DNA of 64,000 nt from contig JAJDDK010000008.1 in NCBI GenBank assembly GCA_029260345.1, positions 62,001 through 126,000 of the forward strand. Reading direction: 5' to 3'. The notes beneath the pieces are model-generated. The model did no database searches, had not been told where the DNA came from, and saw nothing but the letters and a program-made list of their open reading frames with translations. The position numbers and the translations under genes were made by a program. Below, in pieces: positions 14,680 to 64,000 of the stretch; positions within the stretch are counted from its first letter, which is position 1, and every line of letters starts with the position of its first letter. Source of the stretch: Phycisphaerales bacterium. GTDB taxonomy: Bacteria; Planctomycetota; Phycisphaerae; Phycisphaerales; UBA1924.

Positions 14680-15057
14680 TGTCGTCTTTCCTTTGCGAAC
14701 TTGAAGCTCATTTCCGGAGCGACCATTCGGAACACTCCAAAACTGCCCGGATAGTACCAAGCTTGCCCAAATTGGGTCGAACACTCAAAATTTTTCTGTG
14801 GATAAGCTGACGACCATCAACGGATTTGACCGATACGCGATTTACACGCTGACAGGACAGCGCTTTTCCGCCAATCTAGCGGCCCGTCACTGAGCGGCGG
14901 CCGCCGTTATCATAAATCATTGTTCGACAAGTAGTTACGACTGCCATTGCAGCCCGCCCGGCGCGGCGACTGACGGCGAAAAGACGGGGAATGCGCTATA
15001 TTCGTATTTTGTTCGGCCAAGTATCTAGTCGAACTGGGGTGTCAAAAAAATTTTCAC
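14680..15057. other. intergenic stretch between winged-helix gene and thiC
   Basis: About 380 bases without a convincing gene. It holds a perfect palindrome CGGCGGCCGCCG at 14895-14906 and an AT-rich run beside the thiC stop (GTCAAAAAAATTTTC, about 15041-15055). The promoter of the minus-strand gene at 14679 should lie here, but I could not identify clear -35/-10 boxes. Confidence 0.5.
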
Positions 15058-54982: not shown

Positions 54983-56140
54983 ATGACTCGCGTTGCGGGC
55001 GAATTTCGAACGGTCACGGTCGATGGGAATGAGGCGCGTGCGTTCGTGCCCAGCCCCCTGCCGCCTGCGGACCCGCCGCTGACGCTGGACGCCGCGACGG
55101 AGGAATTGCACACCGGCGCCGCCATTGCGCTGGCCAAGCTGGAACTTGCGGGCGCCATGGTCCCCAGCGCCGACTGGTTCCTTTATGGATTCGTTCGCAA
55201 AGAGGCTGTCATCACGTCGCAGATCGAAGGCACGCAAGCCACGCTTCGCGACGTGCTTGAGTTCGAAGCCACTCAATCAACGGAACGGCCCGACGACGTT
55301 GAAGAAGTCAGCAACTATGTCGAAGCGCTCAACTACGCGCGGCGCGAGTTGGCGCGCAAGAATCCGCCCGCCATCGGCGCCGCATTTTTGAGCGGCGTGC
55401 ATAAGCGCCTCATGCAAGGCGCGCGTGGTGCGGACAAGGCGCCGGGGCAAATCCGCTCGACGCAGAACTGGATCGGCGGGCCTACGCCTGACAAGGCGAT
55501 TTATGTGCCGCCGCCGCACGATGAAGTGAACGATGCGCTTCAGGCCTTGGAACAATGGATTGACGCGGATGATTCACTGCCGCCCCTTGTGCGCGCGGGG
55601 CTGGCGCATGTGCAATTCGAAAGCATTCACCCATTTCTTGATGGAAACGGTCGAATCGGCCGCTTGCTTATTACGCTCCTGGCTGAAAAATGGGGGTTGC
55701 TCGATCAGCCGATTTTGTATCTGAGCATTGCGTTCAAACGCCGCCAGCAGGAGTACTACGAGCGCCTTATGGCGGTGCGGACGCGCGGCAACTGGGAACG
55801 ATGGACGCAATTTTTTCTTGAGTGCGTGAGCGAAGCCGCCGAGGATGGAATTGCCACGGCGAAGGCGATTCACGCTGTTTTGCGGAGGGACCGCGATCGC
55901 ATCGTCGGGCACGAACGCGCCACGGTCGCGGCTATCCAATTGTTTGATCATCTGCCGACGCATCCGTTTGTCACCGTGGCGAAAGCGTCGGAACTCCTTG
56001 ATCTCACTGCGCCCCCGGCGCGCAAAGCGATCGAACTTCTTGAAGATTTAGGCGTGCTTTGTGAGACGACAGGCAAGCAGCGCGACCGTGTGTATTTGTA
56101 CCAGGAGTATCTTCATACGCTGGCTGGCGAGAATGTTTGA
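54983..56140 (+). CDS. Fic-domain AMPylase with N-terminal inhibitory helix and C-terminal winged helix
   Basis: A 385-residue Fic protein. The conserved motif HPFLDGNGRIGR is at 216-227 with catalytic His216, which transfers AMP from ATP to target hydroxyls. An inhibitory motif TSQIEG (Thr78-Gly83) lies N-terminal to the Fic domain (class II type), so the enzyme is autoinhibited. A Fic_N-like region precedes it, and the C-terminal 70 residues (HLPTHPFVTVAKASEL to VYLYQEYL) form a winged helix that may bind the operator before the gene. No antitoxin gene is beside it. It is probably an autoregulated, target-AMPylating signalling enzyme. Confidence 0.92.
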   Translation: MTRVAGEFRTVTVDGNEARAFVPSPLPPADPPLTLDAATEELHTGAAIALAKLELAGAMVPSADWFLYGFVRKEAVITSQIEGTQATLRDVLEFEATQSTERPDDVEEVSNYVEALNYARRELARKNPPAIGAAFLSGVHKRLMQGARGADKAPGQIRSTQNWIGGPTPDKAIYVPPPHDEVNDALQALEQWIDADDSLPPLVRAGLAHVQFESIHPFLDGNGRIGRLLITLLAEKWGLLDQPILYLSIAFKRRQQEYYERLMAVRTRGNWERWTQFFLECVSEAAEDGIATAKAIHAVLRRDRDRIVGHERATVAAIQLFDHLPTHPFVTVAKASELLDLTAPPARKAIELLEDLGVLCETTGKQRDRVYLYQEYLHTLAGENV

Positions 56141-56256: not shown

Positions 56257-59200
56257 TCAATGAAAATCGCGCGATGAAGCTCGCAGCGGCGCGGCGCCGT
56301 GCTCAATGCCTTCGATGTGCGTTGTCTGCACATGAACGACGATGCCTTGCCGCTCCACACGTCCGCTGGAGAGAATGATGACGCTGTGCCGCGCTGCGGC
56401 TCGATACCTCTGATAGACCTCCGGACGAACGATCAGGTTGGCGATGCCGGTCTCATCTTCGAGTGTGATGAACACGATGCCGCTCGCGGTTCCGGGGCGC
56501 TGGCGCACGAGGACGACGCCGGCGACGGTGAGGCGGCGTCCCTGCGGCCATCGATTCCCGTCCGCAAGTTCGGCGCACCGCGTGACGCGAAGTTCATCGA
56601 GGCGCGGGCGCAGGAAGCTGACCGGATGCGCCTTGAGCGACAGGCCGACGGAGCCGTAATCGCGCGCGACTTCGCGCATGGGCGGGATTGCGGGGAGCGT
56701 GATGAGTTCTGTTTCGGGCGATGGCGCGGCGTCGAACAGCGGCAGGTCGTCGTCCTTGAGCGCCTGCACGTCCCACTTCGCGGTTTGGCGCGTCAGTCCC
56801 ATTGAGTTGAACGCGTCCGCATCGGCGAGTCTTCGCATGGCGCCGCTGGTGGCGCCGCTGAGGCGCCACAAGCGCTCGACGGACGTGAAGGCGCCATGTT
56901 CATTCACGGCCTGCGCGATCTTGTCCGCATCAACGCGGCTGAGTCCTTTCACCATGCGCATCCCGAGACGCAATGCGACGCCATCACTCCGCGGCTCCAG
57001 CGTGCAATCCCACTGGCTGTGATTGACATCGACGGAGCGCACTTCGACACCGTGCTCTTGCGCATCACGGACGATCTGCGCCGGTGCGTAGAAACCCATC
57101 GGCAGACTGTTCAGAAGCGCTGCGGCGAACGCGGCCGGGTAATGCTTCTTTTGCCACGCCGAGGCGTAGACGAGCAGCGCAAAGCTCGCCGCGTGCGATT
57201 CGGGGAAGCCGTAACCGCTGAATCCTTTGATCTGTTCGAAACAGCGCTCCGAAAATTCCTGGCTGTACCCATGCGCAATCATTCCGGAGATGAGCTTGTC
57301 GCGGAAGCCGAAGATCGCATCGCCGCTGCGCTTCCATGCGGCCATGGCGCGCCGGAGGCGGTCCGCCTCATCGGGTGTGAAGCCGGCCGCGACGACGGAG
57401 AGCGCCATCGCCTGCTCCTGAAAGAGCGGCACACCCAGCGTTTTGCCCAACACGCGTTCAACCTCGGCGCTCGGGTACGACACCGCTTCTTGTCCGGCGC
57501 GCCGGCGCAGGTACGGATGCACCATGCCGCCCTGAATCGGCCCCGGGCGCACAATCGCCACTTCGATAACAAGGTCGTAGTAACAGCGCGGCTTCAGCCG
57601 CGGCGACATCGCCATCTGTGCGCGGCTCTCGACCTGAAACACACCGATTGTGTCCGCTTTGCAGATCATGTCGTACACGCTTGGGTCTTCCGGCGGGATC
57701 GTCGCGAGTGTGAGCGCGCGACCATGATGTTTTTCGATGAGATCGAGGCATTTGCGGATGCACGTGAGCATGCCGAGGCCGAGGCAGTCCACCTTGAGCA
57801 TCCCCAGCGCATCGATGTCGTCCTTGTCCCATTCGATGACGGTGCGGTCCGCCATGGCCGCGTTCTCGATGGGCACAAGGCGCGAGAGCGGCGTCTGCGT
57901 CATCACCATGCCGCCGACATGTTGCGAGAGGTGGCGCGGGAAGCCGCGAATTTCTTCGGCGAGTTCGGCGACTTGCCGAATGGTCGGATCATCAGGATTG
58001 AGGCCGAGTTCGCGCAGGCGCTTGCCGTCAGCGACGCCGTTGTCCCACCAATCAAGACTCTTGGCGAGGCGGTCCACGCAATCCAGGGAAAGACCGAACG
58101 CTTTGCCGACTTCACGAATGGCGCTGCGCCCGCGATAGGAAATCACTTCGGCGGTGAGGGCGGCGCGATGGCGGCCGTACTTCGTGTAGACGTACTGAAG
58201 CACTTCTTCGCGGCGTTCGTGTTCGAAATCAATATCGATGTCGGGCGGCTCGTTGCGCTCGCGGCTGATGAAGCGCTCGAAGAGCAGACTAATGCGATCA
58301 GGATCAACACTGGTGACACCGAGGCAGAAACACACGGCGGAGTTCGCCGCGGCCCCGCGCCCCTGGCAGAGGATGCCGCGCGAGCGCGCATAGCGCACGA
58401 GGTCATGGCAAGTCAGGAAGTACGGCGCATAGGCGAGTTCATCGATGAGCGCGAGTTCGTGATTGATCTGATGGCGCACCTTTTCAGGAAGGCCGTCGGG
58501 GTAGCGATCTTTCGCGCCGGCCCATGTGAGGTCCGCGAGGTGGCTGATGGGTGTGGCGCCCGGCGGGACGATCTCGTGCGGGTATTCGTAGCGGAGCTGA
58601 TCGAGGCTGAAACCGGCGCAGCGCTGGGCGATTTCGACCGTGCGCGCGATGGCGTCGGGGCAAGCCGCGAAGAGTCGGCGCATCTCATCGGGAGTTTTCA
58701 GATGACGCTCGGCATTGGCGAGCAGGCGATACCCGGCCTGGTCAAGCGAGCAGCCGTGGCGGATGCATGTGAGCACATCCTGCAAGCGGCGGCGCTGCGC
58801 TATGTGGCAATGCACATCGTTCGTTGCGACGAGGGGGATGGCGACGTGTTCGGAGAGTGCGTGCAATCGTTCCAGACGATCGGCGTCGTCAGCGCTGTAC
58901 GTGACGCTTGCGGCGAGGGACAGGCGGTCGTTGTTGAAGACGTGGCCCAAGCCGCGGGCGATTTCGATAAAGGATTCGTCGATGATGGCGGGAGGGATCA
59001 GCGCCGCGATCAGTCCGCCGCTGTGGTCGATCACGTCGTGCAGCGACAGGACGCATTCGCCCTTGGGCGCACGACGCTTGCCGAGTGTGAGCAGTTCGCA
59101 CAAACGTCCGTACGCATCGAGATCCGTCGGGTAGACGAGCATTGATACGCCCGGCGGATCAGTCAGCTCCAGTCGCGAGCCGACGATGAATTGCATCCCG

Positions 59201-59460
59201 CAGTCTTTGGCTGCGACGTGGGCGCGCACCACGCCCGCGAGTGTGTTGCGATCCGTGACGGCAATGGCGGCGTGTCCGAGCTGCGCCGCTTGTCGAACCA
59301 TCTCATCCGGGTGGCTGGCGCCGGTGAGGAATGTGAAGTTGCTCGTGACCTGCAACTCCGCGTAGCCGGGGCCATGTCGCGGCGGCGGAAGAATCGCATC
59401 ACTTGAGCGCGGCGTCGTCCACGGGTGCGCACGGGCTTTGGGGGTTGGCGGCTCGGGCAT
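56257..59460 (-). CDS. dnaE2: error-prone DNA polymerase (DnaE2-type)
   Basis: A 1067-residue C-family polymerase, shorter than DnaE1 (about 1160). It starts directly after the imuB stop (3 bases apart). A PHP domain opens the protein (YAELQVTSNFTFLTGASHPD, HAAIAVTDRNTL). The polymerase core has SRERNEPPDIDIDFEHERRE with catalytic acidic residues, then GFPRHLSQHVGGMVM, and late MRMVKGLSRVDADKI. It ends with an OB-fold (VAGVVLVRQRPGTASGI). With ImuA and ImuB it forms the mutasome, which copies past damage using the ImuB-clamp link. The family call is firm; the DnaE2 subtype rests on context and length. Confidence 0.93.
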   Translation of the reverse strand: MPEPPTPKARAHPWTTPRSSDAILPPPRHGPGYAELQVTSNFTFLTGASHPDEMVRQAAQLGHAAIAVTDRNTLAGVVRAHVAAKDCGMQFIVGSRLELTDPPGVSMLVYPTDLDAYGRLCELLTLGKRRAPKGECVLSLHDVIDHSGGLIAALIPPAIIDESFIEIARGLGHVFNNDRLSLAASVTYSADDADRLERLHALSEHVAIPLVATNDVHCHIAQRRRLQDVLTCIRHGCSLDQAGYRLLANAERHLKTPDEMRRLFAACPDAIARTVEIAQRCAGFSLDQLRYEYPHEIVPPGATPISHLADLTWAGAKDRYPDGLPEKVRHQINHELALIDELAYAPYFLTCHDLVRYARSRGILCQGRGAAANSAVCFCLGVTSVDPDRISLLFERFISRERNEPPDIDIDFEHERREEVLQYVYTKYGRHRAALTAEVISYRGRSAIREVGKAFGLSLDCVDRLAKSLDWWDNGVADGKRLRELGLNPDDPTIRQVAELAEEIRGFPRHLSQHVGGMVMTQTPLSRLVPIENAAMADRTVIEWDKDDIDALGMLKVDCLGLGMLTCIRKCLDLIEKHHGRALTLATIPPEDPSVYDMICKADTIGVFQVESRAQMAMSPRLKPRCYYDLVIEVAIVRPGPIQGGMVHPYLRRRAGQEAVSYPSAEVERVLGKTLGVPLFQEQAMALSVVAAGFTPDEADRLRRAMAAWKRSGDAIFGFRDKLISGMIAHGYSQEFSERCFEQIKGFSGYGFPESHAASFALLVYASAWQKKHYPAAFAAALLNSLPMGFYAPAQIVRDAQEHGVEVRSVDVNHSQWDCTLEPRSDGVALRLGMRMVKGLSRVDADKIAQAVNEHGAFTSVERLWRLSGATSGAMRRLADADAFNSMGLTRQTAKWDVQALKDDDLPLFDAAPSPETELITLPAIPPMREVARDYGSVGLSLKAHPVSFLRPRLDELRVTRCAELADGNRWPQGRRLTVAGVVLVRQRPGTASGIVFITLEDETGIANLIVRPEVYQRYRAAARHSVIILSSGRVERQGIVVHVQTTHIEGIEHGAAPLRASSRDFH

Positions 59461-59463
59461 GAT

Positions 59464-60960
59464 TCACGCCCATTCCCCGTGCAGGAACCAGCGCCCGTCG
59501 CCGCGCCGGCGATACACCCACAGCCAGCGTCCTTCTTCGAGTTGCGCGCGGTAGTAGTCGCGCTCCGGCTCATCGCAGCGCCACCATTCGGCGCCGATGC
59601 GCTCCGGACCGATGGAGAGACGCACGCGCTGCGAACCGTCGCGCCCGCGCAGGATCATCAGCGGGCCTTCCGGCGTCATGAGCGCGGCGTCGATGGGACG
59701 CGGGCGATCGAACAGTCGCGAAGGGCGCGGCGCCTCCGGCAGCGCGGCACTGTCGGGCGGGCGGTGCGCTTCATCAGCTCGTGTCAGAACGAAGGCGCGC
59801 TCGGGCAGGTGTGATTCGTGTGCGCTGATTCGCAGGACGCATTCCTCACCAACGCGGCTGGCGAGCGTGTCGATCAGCGCGCCGAGTTCGGCGGAGGCTT
59901 CGCTGCGGGCGCGCTCCGTCCATTGCGTGCGCTGTTCGTGCGCGATGCGGGCGACGCTGCCCGCCGTCAGACGCACGCCTTCGACGCCGAAACCGAGGTG
60001 CGCGGATTCAATCTTCGGCTCGATGAGCGACCACAAATGCGCGGCGTCGCGGCTCGGGCGGCTGAGGCGTGCGGTGAGCTTCTCCGGCGGCAGGTCCGAG
60101 CGGTAGAGCGTGACGAGCAGGCGGCGCGTTCCGCTCTGCCGGCGCAAAAGTTCGCCGCAGAGCATGTCGAGCAGATCGCGGACTGTCAGTGTGATCGCTT
60201 CGAGGCGGTCGGTGGGGCCGTCGAAGGCGCGTTCGGCGCGCACGGGCGGGGCGGGGCGCACGGGAACGATGGATTCCATCGCGCTGCCGAAGACTTGGTC
60301 CAGCCGCAAGAGAACCGAAGCGCCGAAGCGAGCAGGAACGGTCGTGCGCGGCAGAGCGCACACATCACCGACGGTTTCAATCCCGACGTCGCGCATTGCG
60401 ACGATGATGTTGTTCTCGAGGCGCAGCGCTTCGATGGGCAGTGAAGCCAGCGCATCACGCACTTCACCTTCATGAACAATCACGCCGTTCGAAGCGCCAT
60501 GCCGCGCCAGCCCCCACGCGCTCGCAAACGTCGGCGCCAGCGCCAAGCGGTGCGGCAGGTCCAGACCATGAACCGCGTCGCGCACTGCCTCGATCAGTCG
60601 CTCCTCGCCGCCGTACATCGCGGCGCAACCGGAGACGTCCATGAGCAGACCGTCCGGCGGGTCGGGCGCGACGCGCGGCGCCAGGCGCGTCGCCCACACT
60701 GCCAGCCGCTTCAAAGCCCGCTCATCACGAACGGGATCATGCGCTTCAACATGAACATCCGGCGGCGCCAGAGCCCGCGCGTGCGCCATCGTCATGCCGA
60801 GCCGCACGCCAGCCCGCGCGCACACCGGACAGCGAGCCGCGACCAATTCACGCTGACCGTCGCGTATTGAGAGCATGATGGCGCTTGGTTTCCGCGGCGC
60901 CATCCGCTTCCGCGTCAGGTCGATCGGCCAGGTTGGAAGGAACAACGAGATGGCCCGCAT
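59464..60960 (-). CDS. imuB: ImuB-like Y-family polymerase homologue
   Basis: A 498-residue Y-family-like protein. It starts MRAISLFLPTWPIDLTR. The Y-family palm is visible (VCARAGVRLGMTMAHARAL, LLMDVSGCAAMYGGEERLI), but the catalytic pair expected as DE in active polymerases is not intact (MDVSG), in line with ImuB being non-catalytic. ImuB bridges ImuA, DnaE2 and the beta clamp. The start lies inside the 3' end of imuA (113-base overlap), and dnaE2 begins 3 bases after the stop. The C-terminus beyond 420 holds the likely protein contact region. A clamp-binding peptide was not pinpointed. Confidence 0.9.
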   Translation of the reverse strand: MRAISLFLPTWPIDLTRKRMAPRKPSAIMLSIRDGQRELVAARCPVCARAGVRLGMTMAHARALAPPDVHVEAHDPVRDERALKRLAVWATRLAPRVAPDPPDGLLMDVSGCAAMYGGEERLIEAVRDAVHGLDLPHRLALAPTFASAWGLARHGASNGVIVHEGEVRDALASLPIEALRLENNIIVAMRDVGIETVGDVCALPRTTVPARFGASVLLRLDQVFGSAMESIVPVRPAPPVRAERAFDGPTDRLEAITLTVRDLLDMLCGELLRRQSGTRRLLVTLYRSDLPPEKLTARLSRPSRDAAHLWSLIEPKIESAHLGFGVEGVRLTAGSVARIAHEQRTQWTERARSEASAELGALIDTLASRVGEECVLRISAHESHLPERAFVLTRADEAHRPPDSAALPEAPRPSRLFDRPRPIDAALMTPEGPLMILRGRDGSQRVRLSIGPERIGAEWWRCDEPERDYYRAQLEEGRWLWVYRRRGDGRWFLHGEWA

Positions 60961-61666
60961 CGGTCAACTCCACCGTCCAGCGCCGCGGCGTCTGCACGTT
61001 CAATTCGCCTCCTTTGCATCGCACACACTCCACATTCCATCGCGGAGCGAACCGGTCCGACGGCGCAGGCGACACACGCCAGCGCGTCATCGCCGCCGAG
61101 CCTTTGGCGATGTCCGTCGGTGGGCGCGCGAGCACACCCAGCGCGCCATTCGACTCGGCAGCAAGCTGCAAACGGCGCGTCGCCGTGTGCGCGAGGCGCG
61201 AGCCATCGGCGACGACAGCCGCGACGGCGCCGGAGCGCAACGCCAGATCAATCGCCCACACGCGCTCGGCGTCATTTGATGGATCGATGAACAGCGACCG
61301 GCGCATCAGGGCGCGATCGCCACTGGTGACGAGCGCCGTTCCGTACGGCCAGACGGATCGCCCGATCCAGCACACGATGCGTGCATCGTCATTGGCGCTG
61401 ATCGCCCGCCGCGCCAGGTGCGCGAGGATCAGCAAAGGCGCCGACCACGATCGATCCCCGCGCGCCTCCGCCGTCCATTCATGGATCGCGCCGAGACGCA
61501 GCCCGCCATCGGGAAGCGCGTCGTCAATCTCTCTCCACCCCGTCCCCAGCGCGGCGGCGCCACCATCCGCTCGCCCGCTTTCGATGCAACTGATCCGCTC
61601 GCGAAGGTCGCTCAGAGACGGAGCGGGCTGAGGCCGCGGGACACATTGGGCGGCACGTGTTCGCAT
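60848..61666 (-). CDS. imuA: ImuA-like RecA-fold protein
   Basis: A 272-residue protein, the first gene of the cassette. It is related to ImuA and SulA-type RecA-like proteins: LSDLRERISCIESG at the start, then ALGTGWREIDDALPDGGLRLGAIHEW, where the usual Walker A loop is lost, ARIVCWIGRSVWPYG, and RRSLFIDPSNDAERVWAIDLALRSGAV. The C-terminal part (VELTDAGHLVVPS) overlaps imuB. ImuA tethers the mutasome to RecA-coated DNA. The start is an ATG with no strong ribosome-binding site. I saw no clear LexA box upstream. Confidence 0.85.
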   Translation of the reverse strand: MRTRAAQCVPRPQPAPSLSDLRERISCIESGRADGGAAALGTGWREIDDALPDGGLRLGAIHEWTAEARGDRSWSAPLLILAHLARRAISANDDARIVCWIGRSVWPYGTALVTSGDRALMRRSLFIDPSNDAERVWAIDLALRSGAVAAVVADGSRLAHTATRRLQLAAESNGALGVLARPPTDIAKGSAAMTRWRVSPAPSDRFAPRWNVECVRCKGGELNVQTPRRWTVELTDAGHLVVPSNLADRPDAEADGAAETKRHHALNTRRSA

Positions 61667-61792
61667 TTTGTTAGGGTATCGGTCGGGTCCAAATGATCAA
61701 GCGGAGAACCTTCAAATTGGCTGTTTTCCTTCTCCGGTCGTGTCCTGCGCGGCCCTACCCTCCTGCACGCCAGACGCAACGAATGGAGGGGC

Positions 61793-62125
61793 ATGAACGC
61801 ACGAATCATCGCACTCGGACTCGCTCTCGGCTGCGGCATCGGAGTCGCCCTGGGCTCGGCCATCGGCGCCGCGACGGGAAACGTCGGCCTCGGAGTCTCA
61901 CTTGGCATTTCCCTCGGCGCGGGGCTCGGCCTTTGCCTCGGCGCGACGATCGCCGTCTTCATGCAACCCGCCGCCAAAGGAATCTGCCCGCATTGCGGCT
62001 ATTCCACCAAAGGCCTGCCATCGAAAATCTGCCCGGAGTGTGGCGCCGACACCACTGCCGCGCCGCCACCTGAAGAGTCAGCACACAACGACGCAACGAC
62101 AGATTCACCGTCACCCAAAGAGTGA
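61793..62125 (+). CDS. small membrane protein with C-terminal zinc ribbon
   Basis: A 110-residue protein after GGAGGGGC. The N-terminal half is a Gly/Ala/Leu-rich hydrophobic region (about 5-57), likely two helices with GxxxG packing. It is followed by a zinc ribbon, Cys65-x2-Cys68 and Cys80-x2-Cys83 (CPHCGYSTKGL, CPECGAD), of the kind common in planctomycete membrane proteins. The tail is disordered. It is divergent from imuA, and its last 15 bases overlap the end of the convergent SRAP gene. The function is unknown. Confidence 0.65.
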   Translation: MNARIIALGLALGCGIGVALGSAIGAATGNVGLGVSLGISLGAGLGLCLGATIAVFMQPAAKGICPHCGYSTKGLPSKICPECGADTTAAPPPEESAHNDATTDSPSPKE

Positions 62126-62782
62126 ATCCGGCTCAGGCTCGACAGGTTCAAGGCAGGCTGCGTCATCGTTCTTTGGAGAGTTGATGCGCGTGCCGATCGG
62201 TTGCGCCGTCATCTCGTCCGCATCGAACGGGCGCAGCAGATGTTGCAAGTCATCGAGATCCGCCAGGGGATCGAGCCACGCGTCGTACTGATTCCGCGGC
62301 AGGATCACCGGCATCCGATCATGAATCGGCGCGACGAGACCATTCGGTTCGGTCGTCAGAATTGCGTACGTTTCAATGTCACCCCATCGCTCCCAGATGC
62401 CCGCAAAGCAAAACGGATCGCCGCTGTTCAGCAGAATGTGGAACGGCTGTTTGCGCCCGCGCCCCGGTTTCTTTTGCCATTCAATAAAACCCGTCGCCGG
62501 CACGAGGCAGCGCCGCTCGCGAAAAGCATTGCGGAATGACCGTTTTTCGTTCACCGTCTCCGAGCGCGCGTTGATCATCCCCATCCCATCGCGCGAGAAC
62601 GACGGAATAAGCCCCCAGCGCAGCATGATGAACTCGCGTTCACCGTCAGTGTCGAGCCGCACCACCGGCGCTGATTGTGAGGGTGCGACATTAAACCGCG
62701 GCGCAAACTCCCCCGGCGCGATCAAACCAAAGATCGCCGCGAGCTCTTCCGCTTCGACAATGAGGGCATATCGACCGCACAT
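62111..62782 (-). CDS. SRAP-family (YedK/HMCES-like) DNA-protein crosslink protein
   Basis: A 223-residue SRAP protein, the same fold as E. coli YedK and human HMCES. After Met removal, Cys2 (MCGRYAL) forms a thiazolidine bond with abasic sites in single-stranded DNA. Other conserved parts: PRFNVAPSQSAPVV, WGLIPSF, INARSETV, RRCLVPATGFIEW with its Glu, and IHDRMPVILP with the active His. It protects abasic sites at forks. It lies next to the imuA-imuB-dnaE2 cassette, which makes a DNA-damage block. It starts with ATG and is cytosolic. Confidence 0.94.
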   Translation of the reverse strand: MCGRYALIVEAEELAAIFGLIAPGEFAPRFNVAPSQSAPVVRLDTDGEREFIMLRWGLIPSFSRDGMGMINARSETVNEKRSFRNAFRERRCLVPATGFIEWQKKPGRGRKQPFHILLNSGDPFCFAGIWERWGDIETYAILTTEPNGLVAPIHDRMPVILPRNQYDAWLDPLADLDDLQHLLRPFDADEMTAQPIGTRINSPKNDDAACLEPVEPEPDSLFG

Positions 62783-63271
62783 GCTGAGACATCATAGTTG
62801 TTGGATCCCAGGCGCCGCGGAGGCGCAGCACAATCAGGCGAGCGAACATCATGCGTCAGTGAGTTGTGTGCGTGCACGCGTGCCGACCTCTCGTCTGCGG
62901 TCGCCTCGCTCTCGAAGCGTTCGCCCGCGTCCACAGCGAAGGGCCCGTCGGCGGCGAGACGATCAAAATTGGCCTCACAACACTCGTCTGGAGGATGTTC
63001 GGGCGTGTTGGCGGCGCCGGGTGTGACGTGTTTCTCGTCCATAAGATGCGGCTCCGGGGAGGAGGGGCCACTTCTCTCTTTGCGCGGGGCGCCACAAGTA
63101 TTGCAGTTCTGAAATCTCGAAATGCGAAAAATCAAAGTCTCGTCGTCTGTTGGTGAATTCTCTATTGATGATTCGTGGATTCGCGCTTCCCTAAGAACGC
63201 CGATCGGCTAAATTTGCGTTGTAAAAAGGCTGGGGCTGCTGCCCTACGACGACGCGCTGGAGTTCACAGGC
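62783..63271. other. non-coding stretch before the exported FG-GAP gene
   Basis: About 490 bases. A minus-strand frame from 63042 to 62722 (107 residues, starting MDEKHVTPG) exists, but it has no good ribosome-binding site, no recognisable domain and overlaps the SRAP start, so I do not call it a gene. AT-rich sequence around 63110-63230 may carry the promoter for the gene at 63272. Confidence 0.5.
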
Positions 63272-64000
63272 ATGAAACGAAGAATCGATTCTGGAATCAA
63301 GACCTGGACACTTTGGAGCCTTGTGGCTCTCGTTCTATTCCCGTTGCCTGCCACGACCGCCAACGGCGCGCCGATGTTCGAGAGTGAACTGATCGATATT
63401 GGGAGTCCCACCGAATCAATGGCGGCGGGAGACATCAATGGCGACGGTCTCATTGATTTGGTCGCGGCGCCCGCACAGCCAAACCAATTTTCAACACCCC
63501 ACATCTTGCTCATGTTTGCCGATCCGAACGCGCAGCAGGGCTATGTTTCTGTTCAGTTTGAGTTGGAGTTTGAACAACGTCTCGTCAAACTCGTCGATGT
63601 TGATCTGGATAATGACCTTGATCTCATTGTCGCCGGCCATAGCAATGGCGACCCAGACAATCATGAGGTCCAGGTCTTCTTCAATGACGCCTTTGGCAAC
63701 TTCACCATTGAGCAGACTTTTGACTTCACCAACCCTCCGCAGTTTGTGGAACTCAAAGATGTCAACTACGACAATTGGCCGGACATGGTGTTGCTGTTTG
63801 GCAGCGCCGTCGGTGTCTCGCTCAATCAGGGCGACGGTCACTTTGGCCCAACTACGCTCGAAACGGGTTCAACCTCATTCATGAGCTGGATGGAGGTAGC
63901 TGATATTAATGGCGACGGGTTGCAGGATGTTGTGTTTGCTGATTTTGGCGACCAACGAGTTCTCTATGTTTCGATTGCGCTCGATGGGCTTTCACTCTCG
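63272..64000 (+). CDS. exported FG-GAP/VCBS-repeat protein (partial at window end)
   Basis: The first 243 residues of a longer protein; the frame is open to the window edge. The start MKRRIDSGIKTWTLW has GGAG and a hydrophobic signal ending TTANGAP. The mature part has FG-GAP/VCBS-type calcium-binding repeats: AAGDINGDGLIDLVAAPA, DVDLDNDLDLIVAGHSNGD, DVNYDNWPDMVLLFGSAVG and VADINGDGLQDVVFADFGD. These form integrin-like propeller blades and are common in exported planctomycete proteins with surface or matrix roles. The rest of the protein, including any anchor or dockerin tail, lies outside the window. Confidence 0.8.
   Translation, partial: MKRRIDSGIKTWTLWSLVALVLFPLPATTANGAPMFESELIDIGSPTESMAAGDINGDGLIDLVAAPAQPNQFSTPHILLMFADPNAQQGYVSVQFELEFEQRLVKLVDVDLDNDLDLIVAGHSNGDPDNHEVQVFFNDAFGNFTIEQTFDFTNPPQFVELKDVNYDNWPDMVLLFGSAVGVSLNQGDGHFGPTTLETGSTSFMSWMEVADINGDGLQDVVFADFGDQRVLYVSIALDGLSLS

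What the first reader, a model, noticed from the sequence alone, without database searches (positions are those of the whole stretch)
56257..62782. imuA-imuB-dnaE2 mutasome beside an SRAP gene: a DNA-damage tolerance block
All three cassette genes are on one strand, with a 3-base gap between imuB and dnaE2. The imuA-imuB overlap is 113 bases, unusually long. The adjacent SRAP protein protects abasic sites. A Fic protein lies at the other side. No LexA box was seen, so the control is unclear.
Basis: partly seen in the sequence, partly recalled or inferred. Interest (0 to 1): 0.55.

Follow-up and report, generated by a model that had tools for sequence, protein, structure and literature searches.

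The report
Mutagenic repair cassette with LexA switch

Summary
The cassette is real: imuA (61666-60848), imuB (60960-59464), dnaE2 (59460-56257), minus strand, 113-base imuA/imuB overlap, 3-base gap. It is an ordinary ImuA-ImuB-DnaE2 mutasome. Three points change. (1) A LexA-type box exists: GTTCGCATTTTGTTAGGGTA at 61659-61678, a period-11 direct repeat, covers the putative imuA -10 and contains its ATG. Leave-one-out scoring finds the motif at 30 of 34 imuA regions. A matrix trained on imuA alone finds it upstream of 13 of 30 recA and 12 of 50 lexA genes. In this genome matches lie at lexA, recA, imuA, pcrA/uvrD and a PA0069-type radical SAM gene. In 10 of 24 like-oriented imuA sites an ATG lies at that place, in frame in all 10, suggesting a leaderless transcript. 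(2) The long overlap is usual: 30 of 31 relatives overlap in the same frame. (3) SRAP is linked in 13 of 33 genomes, but here an opposite-strand ORF intervenes and SRAP has no box; Fic looks like a bystander. Nothing was tested by experiment. In passing: an unknown ORF reads about 200 bases into lexA in 48 of 50 loci.

The parts
61659..61678 (+). LexA-type operator GTTCGCATTTTGTTAGGGTA: direct repeat GTTCGC / GTTAGG, period 11; covers the putative imuA -10 and the start codon
   Evidence: Matrix scan and leave-one-out score 31.5 bits; only window site of 14 bits or more (next best 13.8); same motif at recA, lexA operon, pcrA and, in relatives, Pol IV genes. GTTC-N7-GTTM alone is not significant in the window: 1 match, 3.07 expected
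61673..61678 (-). Putative -10 hexamer TACCCT inside the operator
   Evidence: Window and relatives: 19 of 24 like-oriented sites have TTGnnn 16-17 bases upstream, at most 2 at any other spacing from 10 to 30. The generic sigma-70 scan finds no promoter here
61695..61700 (-). Putative -35 hexamer TTGATC, 16-base spacer
61664..61666 (-). imuA ATG inside the operator, 6 bases after the -10: predicted leaderless mRNA
   Evidence: ATG at this offset in 10 of 24 like-oriented sites, in frame in 10 of 10
60848..61666 (-). imuA, 272 aa, mutasome subunit of the ImuA family; no Walker A motif seen by eye
   Evidence: NCBIfam ImuA_translesion 4e-21 but 75.7 bits, under the cut-off of 150; no Pfam match; alignment with relatives
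60848..60960 (-). 113-base imuA/imuB overlap
   Evidence: same frame in 30 of 31 relatives
59464..60960 (-). imuB, 498 aa, inactive Y-family polymerase-like scaffold
   Evidence: Pfam IMS 1.4e-8; Asp-Glu pair of a Pol IV aligns with Asp103-Gly104
56257..59460 (-). dnaE2, 1067 aa, error-prone C-family polymerase
   Evidence: NCBIfam NF004225 1455.9 bits, cut-off 939; catalytic Asp residues kept in the alignment with a Pol III alpha chain
61793..62125 (+). Small ORF (110 aa, Gly-rich N-part, zinc-ribbon-like C-part) between imuA and SRAP; not part of the cassette
   Evidence: Pfam weak, under cut-offs
62111..62782 (-). SRAP (YedK/HMCES family) gene; recurrent neighbour, not in the boxed unit here
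   Evidence: Pfam SRAP 226.4 bits; no site of 3 bits or more at 62000-63400
54983..56140 (+). Fic family gene, convergent with dnaE2; probable bystander
   Evidence: Pfam Fic_N and Fic; among loci L081-L120 found only in L117, beside an SRAP gene

Best explanation
This is an SOS-controlled ImuA-ImuB-DnaE2 translesion-synthesis cassette. LexA binds the direct-repeat box at 61659-61678, which covers the -10 element, the likely transcription start and the imuA start codon, and so blocks transcription. After DNA damage RecA filaments trigger LexA self-cleavage. A transcript that probably begins at or near the AUG (leaderless) is made, and imuA, imuB and dnaE2 are translated in turn, coupled by the 113-base overlap and the 3-base gap. 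ImuB (inactive) links ImuA, the beta clamp and DnaE2, and DnaE2 copies past lesions with errors. Shown by sequence: the genes, the motif and its conservation, the in-frame ATGs, the promoter spacing in relatives, the conserved order and overlap. Inferred: that LexA is the binder, the leaderless start, translational coupling, and the mutagenic function (from studied homologues).
For: Family calls and conserved order in 29 of 32 relative loci. Leave-one-out box of 16 bits or more in 30 of 34 imuA regions, against 1 in 2 Mb of random sequence. A matrix trained on imuA only finds sites of 15 bits or more upstream of 13 of 30 recA genes and 550-900 bases upstream of 12 of 50 lexA genes, against 1 in 3 Mb random. 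In G000 the only zero-mismatch matches are lexA operon, recA and imuA (the pattern was built from these three); with up to 2 mismatches 11 hits against 2 for the reversed control, among the others pcrA/uvrD and a PA0069-type radical SAM gene. In 61 genomes 41 hits against 3 control; of 29 new loci returned, 13 lie at SOS-type genes: imuA 8, recA 1, Y-family Pol IV 2, integron integrase 1, and a dnaE2 read by eye. Period-11 column correlation 0.64, other shifts from 6 to 14 at most 0.32.
Against: No binding or expression data. 38 of 50 lexA loci (one of them, L018, with almost no upstream sequence) and 17 of 30 recA loci lack a site of 15 bits in the range counted. Two genomes without a detected LexA (G021, G042; 91% and 97% complete) still have strong imuA boxes (L105, L115). 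Four of 34 imuA regions (L087, L089, L098, L114) fall under 16 bits. The generic promoter scan finds nothing. GTTC-N7-GTTM alone is expected 3 times in the window. ImuA is under its NCBIfam cut-off. 16 of the 29 new loci show no evident SOS gene, and several 2-mismatch hits in G000 lie inside genes.
Confidence: 0.85

Rival explanations
1. The motif is the site of another DNA-damage regulator (for example a WYL-type activator like PafBC, or an alternative sigma factor), not LexA.
For: The motif overlaps -10 or -35 and is not palindromic; two genomes without detected LexA have it; one 2-mismatch hit lies upstream of an ECF-type sigma gene (L161).
Against: It occurs upstream of lexA itself and recA, in either orientation (24 like the window, 8 opposite), overlapping the -10 in some loci and upstream of it in others, as operators do; targets fit the published LexA core (PMC3323433, passages).
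Confidence: 0.1
2. SRAP, imuA-imuB-dnaE2 and Fic form one co-regulated DNA-damage tolerance block.
For: SRAP within 5 kb of the cassette in 13 of 33 genomes in three arrangements; in L082, L102 and L113 the box lies between divergent SRAP and imuA, in L094 and L095 SRAP follows dnaE2 closely on the same strand.
Against: In the window a plus-strand ORF separates SRAP from imuA and SRAP has no box; where SRAP lies just upstream on the same strand in relatives (L084, L086, L089, L092, L103) the box is between SRAP and imuA; unlinked SRAP genes L116-L120 have no box of 12 bits or more within 300 bases upstream, 0 of 5. Fic is beside no other cassette among L081-L115.
Confidence: 0.12
3. The motif is only a conserved promoter (TTGnnn-16/17-TACCCT) with a conserved start region, with no operator function.
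For: The -35/-10 spacing is conserved.
Against: Sites occur in the opposite orientation and away from the -10, conservation extends to the GTTCGC/GTTAGG halves with period 11, and the same full motif is at recA and the lexA operon.
Confidence: 0.04

Closest known systems
LexA-regulated imuA-imuB-dnaE2 cassette of Alphaproteobacteria (Caulobacter type)
   Same: Gene order, long imuA/imuB overlap (mostly 47-113 bases), nearest ImuB relatives after Phycisphaerales in the best 80, GTTC-N7-GTTC direct-repeat operator (motif from PMC3323433, passages)
   Different: LexA here has a different recognition helix (SKVTAFEHVETL against SKSGIHRLITAL and near variants) and groups apart in a 24-row tree with long branches; second half-site usually GTTAGG; start codon inside the operator. 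Whether alphaproteobacterial imuA has that too was not tested
SRAP gene neighbourhoods with imuA-imuB-dnaE2 (Aravind et al. 2013, PMC3765255, passages)
   Same: SRAP alongside genes of the cassette
   Different: Here and in five relatives with SRAP just upstream the LexA-type box does not cover SRAP
Leaderless lexA mRNA of Mycobacterium tuberculosis (PMC2897130, passages)
   Same: An SOS gene whose transcription start equals its translation start
   Different: There it is experimental and at lexA; here predicted, at imuA, with the ATG inside the operator
M. tuberculosis ImuA'-ImuB-DnaE2 mutasome
   Same: Same three-subunit architecture (PMC12926913, passages)
   Different: Split cassette and ImuA2/ImuB2 type there (PMC6511836 and PMC12926913, passages)

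Membership tests
ImuA-ImuB-DnaE2 mutasome | imuA, imuB, dnaE2 adjacent, same order and strand | tested here: met
ImuA-ImuB-DnaE2 mutasome | DnaE2-type error-prone polymerase with catalytic Asp residues | tested here: met
   NF004225 1455.9 bits, cut-off 939; PPDIDIDF and KVDCLGL align with MPDFDVDF and KFDFLGL of the Pol III alpha chain 5fku (that it is E. coli and that these Asp are catalytic is recalled)
ImuA-ImuB-DnaE2 mutasome | ImuB a Y-family homologue without active site | tested here: met
   Pfam IMS above cut-off; Glu of the Asp-Glu pair aligns with Gly104, the majority residue in 18 aligned ImuB but not listed as invariant. The N-terminal active-site Asp was not covered by the alignment
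ImuA-ImuB-DnaE2 mutasome | ImuA recognised by the curated model | tested here: inconclusive
   ImuA_translesion 4e-21, 75.7 bits against a cut-off of 150
ImuA-ImuB-DnaE2 mutasome | LexA-controlled, damage-induced | not testable with these tools
   A box is present; binding and induction need experiments
SRAP (YedK/HMCES) | SRAP domain with Cys2, Asn, Glu, His of the active site | tested here: met
   Pfam 226.4 bits; MCGR start in the sequence; NAR, GFIEW, HDRMP align with HMCES 6oe7; the role of these residues is recalled
LexA operator, alphaproteobacterial type (GTTC-N7-GTTC) | Direct repeat with period 11 | tested here: met
   Column correlation 0.64 at shift 11; in the window GTTC-N7-GTTA
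LexA operator, alphaproteobacterial type (GTTC-N7-GTTC) | Genome's LexA of the alphaproteobacterial kind | tested here: not met
   Recognition helix differs from nine alphaproteobacterial LexA and the LexA groups apart

The most novel reading that the evidence does not exclude
Phycisphaerales have their own SOS control logic. A direct-repeat LexA box (GTTCGG-N5-GTTMGG), reached independently of Alphaproteobacteria by a different LexA, is fused in one 20-base element with the -10, the transcription start and the start codon of imuA, giving leaderless damage-induced mRNAs. lexA itself is preceded and overlapped by about 200 bases by a conserved unknown gene in another frame, which would tie the repressor's translation to that protein.
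Probability: 0.55. Interest if true: 0.65.

Novelty: new variant of a known kind. Interest (0 to 1): 0.5.

Why it matters
In the one passage seen here that speaks of the LexA site of Planctomycetes it is given only negatively: not the conventional E. coli type (PMC3108266, passage). A working motif makes the SOS regulon of this group searchable, including an integron integrase in one relative. The fusion of operator and start codon is a compact repressor design that can be tested in one gel shift and one 5'-end mapping. The overlapping gene at lexA, if real, is a new SOS component.

Tried and rejected
Palindromic and direct 4-5-mer enumeration in lexA upstream regions gave only GC-rich noise. 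That script also took loci on the minus strand in the wrong orientation, and the real lexA-operon sites lie 550-900 bases upstream; both were corrected. The bare GTTC-N7-GTTM pattern was uninformative. A first pattern gave 4 hits in G000 against 1 reversed; one of them, at window 15000, looks like chance. Whether box presence at lexA and recA tracks possession of the cassette was only looked over, not computed; no pattern was evident. Fic as part of the block was rejected, though in G036 a Fic gene directly precedes SRAP (L117).

Rows dropped before counts: G026, which has an ImuB fragment, was not fetched, so it is in none of the locus counts. L101 (imuA cut by contig end) was left out of the imuA-upstream sets; L101 and the decayed L114 out, where L087 fell under the 15-bit limit. 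In one search the upstream stretch was widened for L111 and L112 because their ImuA matches start far inside long frames. In one search the imuB starts of L098, L105, L106, L110 and L111 are doubtful, so their overlap lengths are rough. recA was looked at in the 30 loci returned of 37 genomes searched, lexA in 50 of the 59 genomes with a match.
Full report
What is there. The window's minus strand from 61666 to 56257 carries imuA, imuB and dnaE2. Pfam and NCBIfam place DnaE2 firmly in the error-prone polymerase subfamily (1455.9 bits, cut-off 939), ImuB in the Y family (IMS, above cut-off) and ImuA in ImuA_translesion, the last at 4e-21 but under its curated cut-off. DnaE2 keeps the aspartates that align with those of a solved Pol III alpha chain; in ImuB the glutamate of the Asp-Glu pair of a Pol IV is Gly104; I see no Walker A motif in the ImuA sequence. 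The SRAP protein keeps the residues that align with HMCES.

Organism. The genome is an unnamed assembly of 3.40 Mb in 8 contigs. The nearest named ImuB relatives in genome contigs are L166-L169 (41-47% identity over the best segment): three titled Phycisphaerales or Phycisphaeraceae, one only 'bacterium'; the rest of the best 80 are mostly Alphaproteobacteria.

Conservation. Among 61 genomes (own, same family, same order) ImuB-query matches occur in 37, three of which (G040, G044, G056) look like ordinary Pol IV at 20-22% identity; ImuA in 35, SRAP in 43, LexA in 59. I fetched stretches around the ImuB matches of 32 relatives (G026, with a fragment, was not fetched). In 29 of 32 loci (L081-L112) imuA-imuB-dnaE2 stand in that order on one strand; L091 ends before imuA, L106 and L107 have no adjacent dnaE2. 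L114 (G014) is a decayed cassette. The overlap of imuA and imuB is in the same frame in 30 of 31 relative loci where both could be placed; L112 is the exception. It is at least 47 bases long in 58 of 74 measured loci among 80 of genome contigs; the ten loci with Bacteroidota titles lie between -3 and 8. So the overlap is a trait of this branch, and 113 is at the upper end.

SRAP and Fic. SRAP lies within 5 kb of the cassette in 13 of 33 genomes (window plus the 32 genomes of L081-L112; G039 through its other contig, L113): upstream on the same strand in seven, divergent in four, downstream of dnaE2 on the same strand in two. With one SRAP gene in about 3.5 Mb the chance expectation is roughly 0.15 of 33 (my estimate). 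The genomes are related, four of the 13 being one genus, but three arrangements argue that linkage is kept or regained. Such association is known (PMC3765255, abstract and passages). In the window a plus-strand ORF (61793-62125) stands between SRAP and imuA, and SRAP has no box. In five relatives with SRAP just upstream the box lies between SRAP and imuA; in three with divergent genes it lies between both starts; five unlinked SRAP genes have no box within 300 bases upstream. In genome-contig loci SRAP occurs in the fetched flank (up to 9 kb, often less) of 13 of 80. Fic appears beside no other cassette among L081-L115.

The box. imuA upstream regions of relatives share a strong motif. A matrix built by a simple EM search on 34 regions, the window's included, gave GTTCGCATTTTGTTAGGGTA. 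With leave-one-out, 30 of 34 regions hold a site of 16 bits or more (L087, L089, L098 and L114 do not); random sequence with the same base steps gave 1 in 2 Mb. The window site, + strand 61659-61678, scores 31.5 bits and is the only one of 14 bits or more in 64 kb. Columns correlate at a shift of 11 (0.64; other shifts from 6 to 14 at most 0.32), a direct repeat. The matrix was not trained on recA or lexA. Yet 13 of 30 recA loci have a site of 15 bits or more within 600 bases upstream (G000: 17.8 bits), and 12 of 50 lexA loci have one 550-900 bases upstream, in front of the ORF that precedes lexA (G000: 18.3 bits); random sequence gave 1 in 3 Mb. In G000 a pattern built from these three sites has no other exact match; with up to 2 mismatches there are 11 hits against 2 for the reversed pattern. 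Besides the three they include pcrA/uvrD (box just inside the coding start) and a PA0069-family radical SAM gene whose ATG touches the box, and also hits at an ECF-type sigma gene, at an unknown ORF and inside genes. Over 61 genomes a second pattern, drawn up after seeing imuA and recA sites, has 41 hits against 3 reversed. Of 29 new loci returned, 13 lie at SOS-type genes: imuA 8, recA 1, Y-family Pol IV 2, an integron integrase (TIGR02249, 334.8 bits, cut-off 265) and a dnaE2 that I read by eye; 16 show no evident SOS link.

Layout. Of 32 imuA sites of 15 bits or more, 24 lie in the window's orientation. In 19 of these a TTG starts a hexamer 16 or 17 bases before TAyCCT; no other spacing from 10 to 30 has more than 2. 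In 10 of 24 an ATG stands at offset 12, and it is in frame with imuA in all 10. The -10 is 6 bases from that ATG, so the transcript should start at or very near the AUG. In the window: TTGATC (61700-61695), 16 bases, TACCCT (61678-61673), 6 bases, ATG (61666-61664). The generic scan finds no promoter here, so the promoter claim rests on the comparison.

Which protein binds. LexA is present in G000, with the recognition helix SKVTAFEHVETL, unlike SKSGIHRLITAL and near variants in nine alphaproteobacterial sequences, and it groups apart in a 24-row tree that has long branches and an arbitrary root. A similar direct repeat bound by a different LexA would be convergence, or an operator that travelled with the cassette; I cannot tell. 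Against LexA: G021 and G042 have the box without detected LexA, and most lexA and recA loci lack a strong site (38 of 50 and 17 of 30). PMC3323433 (passages) says that the cassette, where present, is persistently LexA-regulated and in several organisms is the only regulated unit.

In print. Eight paper searches listed no title or abstract beginning that gives a LexA box for Planctomycetes or Phycisphaerae. The lists were capped below the number of papers found, and only open-licence papers are held. [quoted passage not shown] coli motif (PMC3108266).

A lead outside the window. In 48 of 50 lexA loci, one each from 50 genomes with G000 among them, an ORF with an LGPGG-type motif near its N-terminus lies before lexA and reads 197-251 bases into it in the -1 frame (the exceptions are L011 and L018, the latter with almost no upstream sequence). 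In 49 lexA genes that frame has no stop in codons 1-62. Of 615 junctions there where a T at the third position would make or could make a stop none has T, against 244 of 1618 other junctions, and 115 of 1385 such junctions later in lexA. In 12 lexA genes of other groups 9 have stops there, with T at 19 of 128 such junctions. This points to a real overlapping gene; its function is unknown.

Verdict. The cassette is an ordinary mutasome; the control that seemed missing is very probably present, in a form that I did not find described for this group.

Noticed in passing
L061 (G000, C5:262000-265600), lexA region; and L001-L030, L062-L080: An unknown ORF with an LGPGG-type N-terminal motif precedes lexA in 48 of 50 loci and reads about 200 bases into lexA in the -1 frame, which is free of stops in codons 1-62 of 49 of 49 genes tested.
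   Followed up: partly
L248 (G045), site at 1501-1520, gene 1568-2788: An integron integrase gene (TIGR02249) in a relative has a LexA-type box (24.2 bits) upstream.
   Followed up: partly
L165 (G000, C7:164601-164620): A 22.3-bit box directly before the start of a 220-aa ORF with no Pfam or NCBIfam match: possible new SOS gene.
   Followed up: no
L161 (G000, C5:539360-539379): A 21.3-bit box upstream of an ECF-type sigma gene, followed by an ORF that looks like an anti-sigma gene by eye.
   Followed up: no
L117 4795-6594 (G036): A Fic gene directly precedes SRAP on the same strand in a genome without an ImuB match, recalling the window's Fic and SRAP on either side of the cassette.
   Followed up: no
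L114 233-3027 (G014): Decayed cassette: pieces of dnaE2 and imuA, no imuB, next to a partial SRAP match.
   Followed up: no
L274 (G042, C89:6460-6479): A dnaE2 (read by eye) on a separate contig from imuA with its own strong box (29.1 bits), so possibly a split cassette.
   Followed up: no
window 15000-15019: A weak box-like site (11.7 bits) just downstream of a thiC-like gene (by eye); probably chance.
   Followed up: partly
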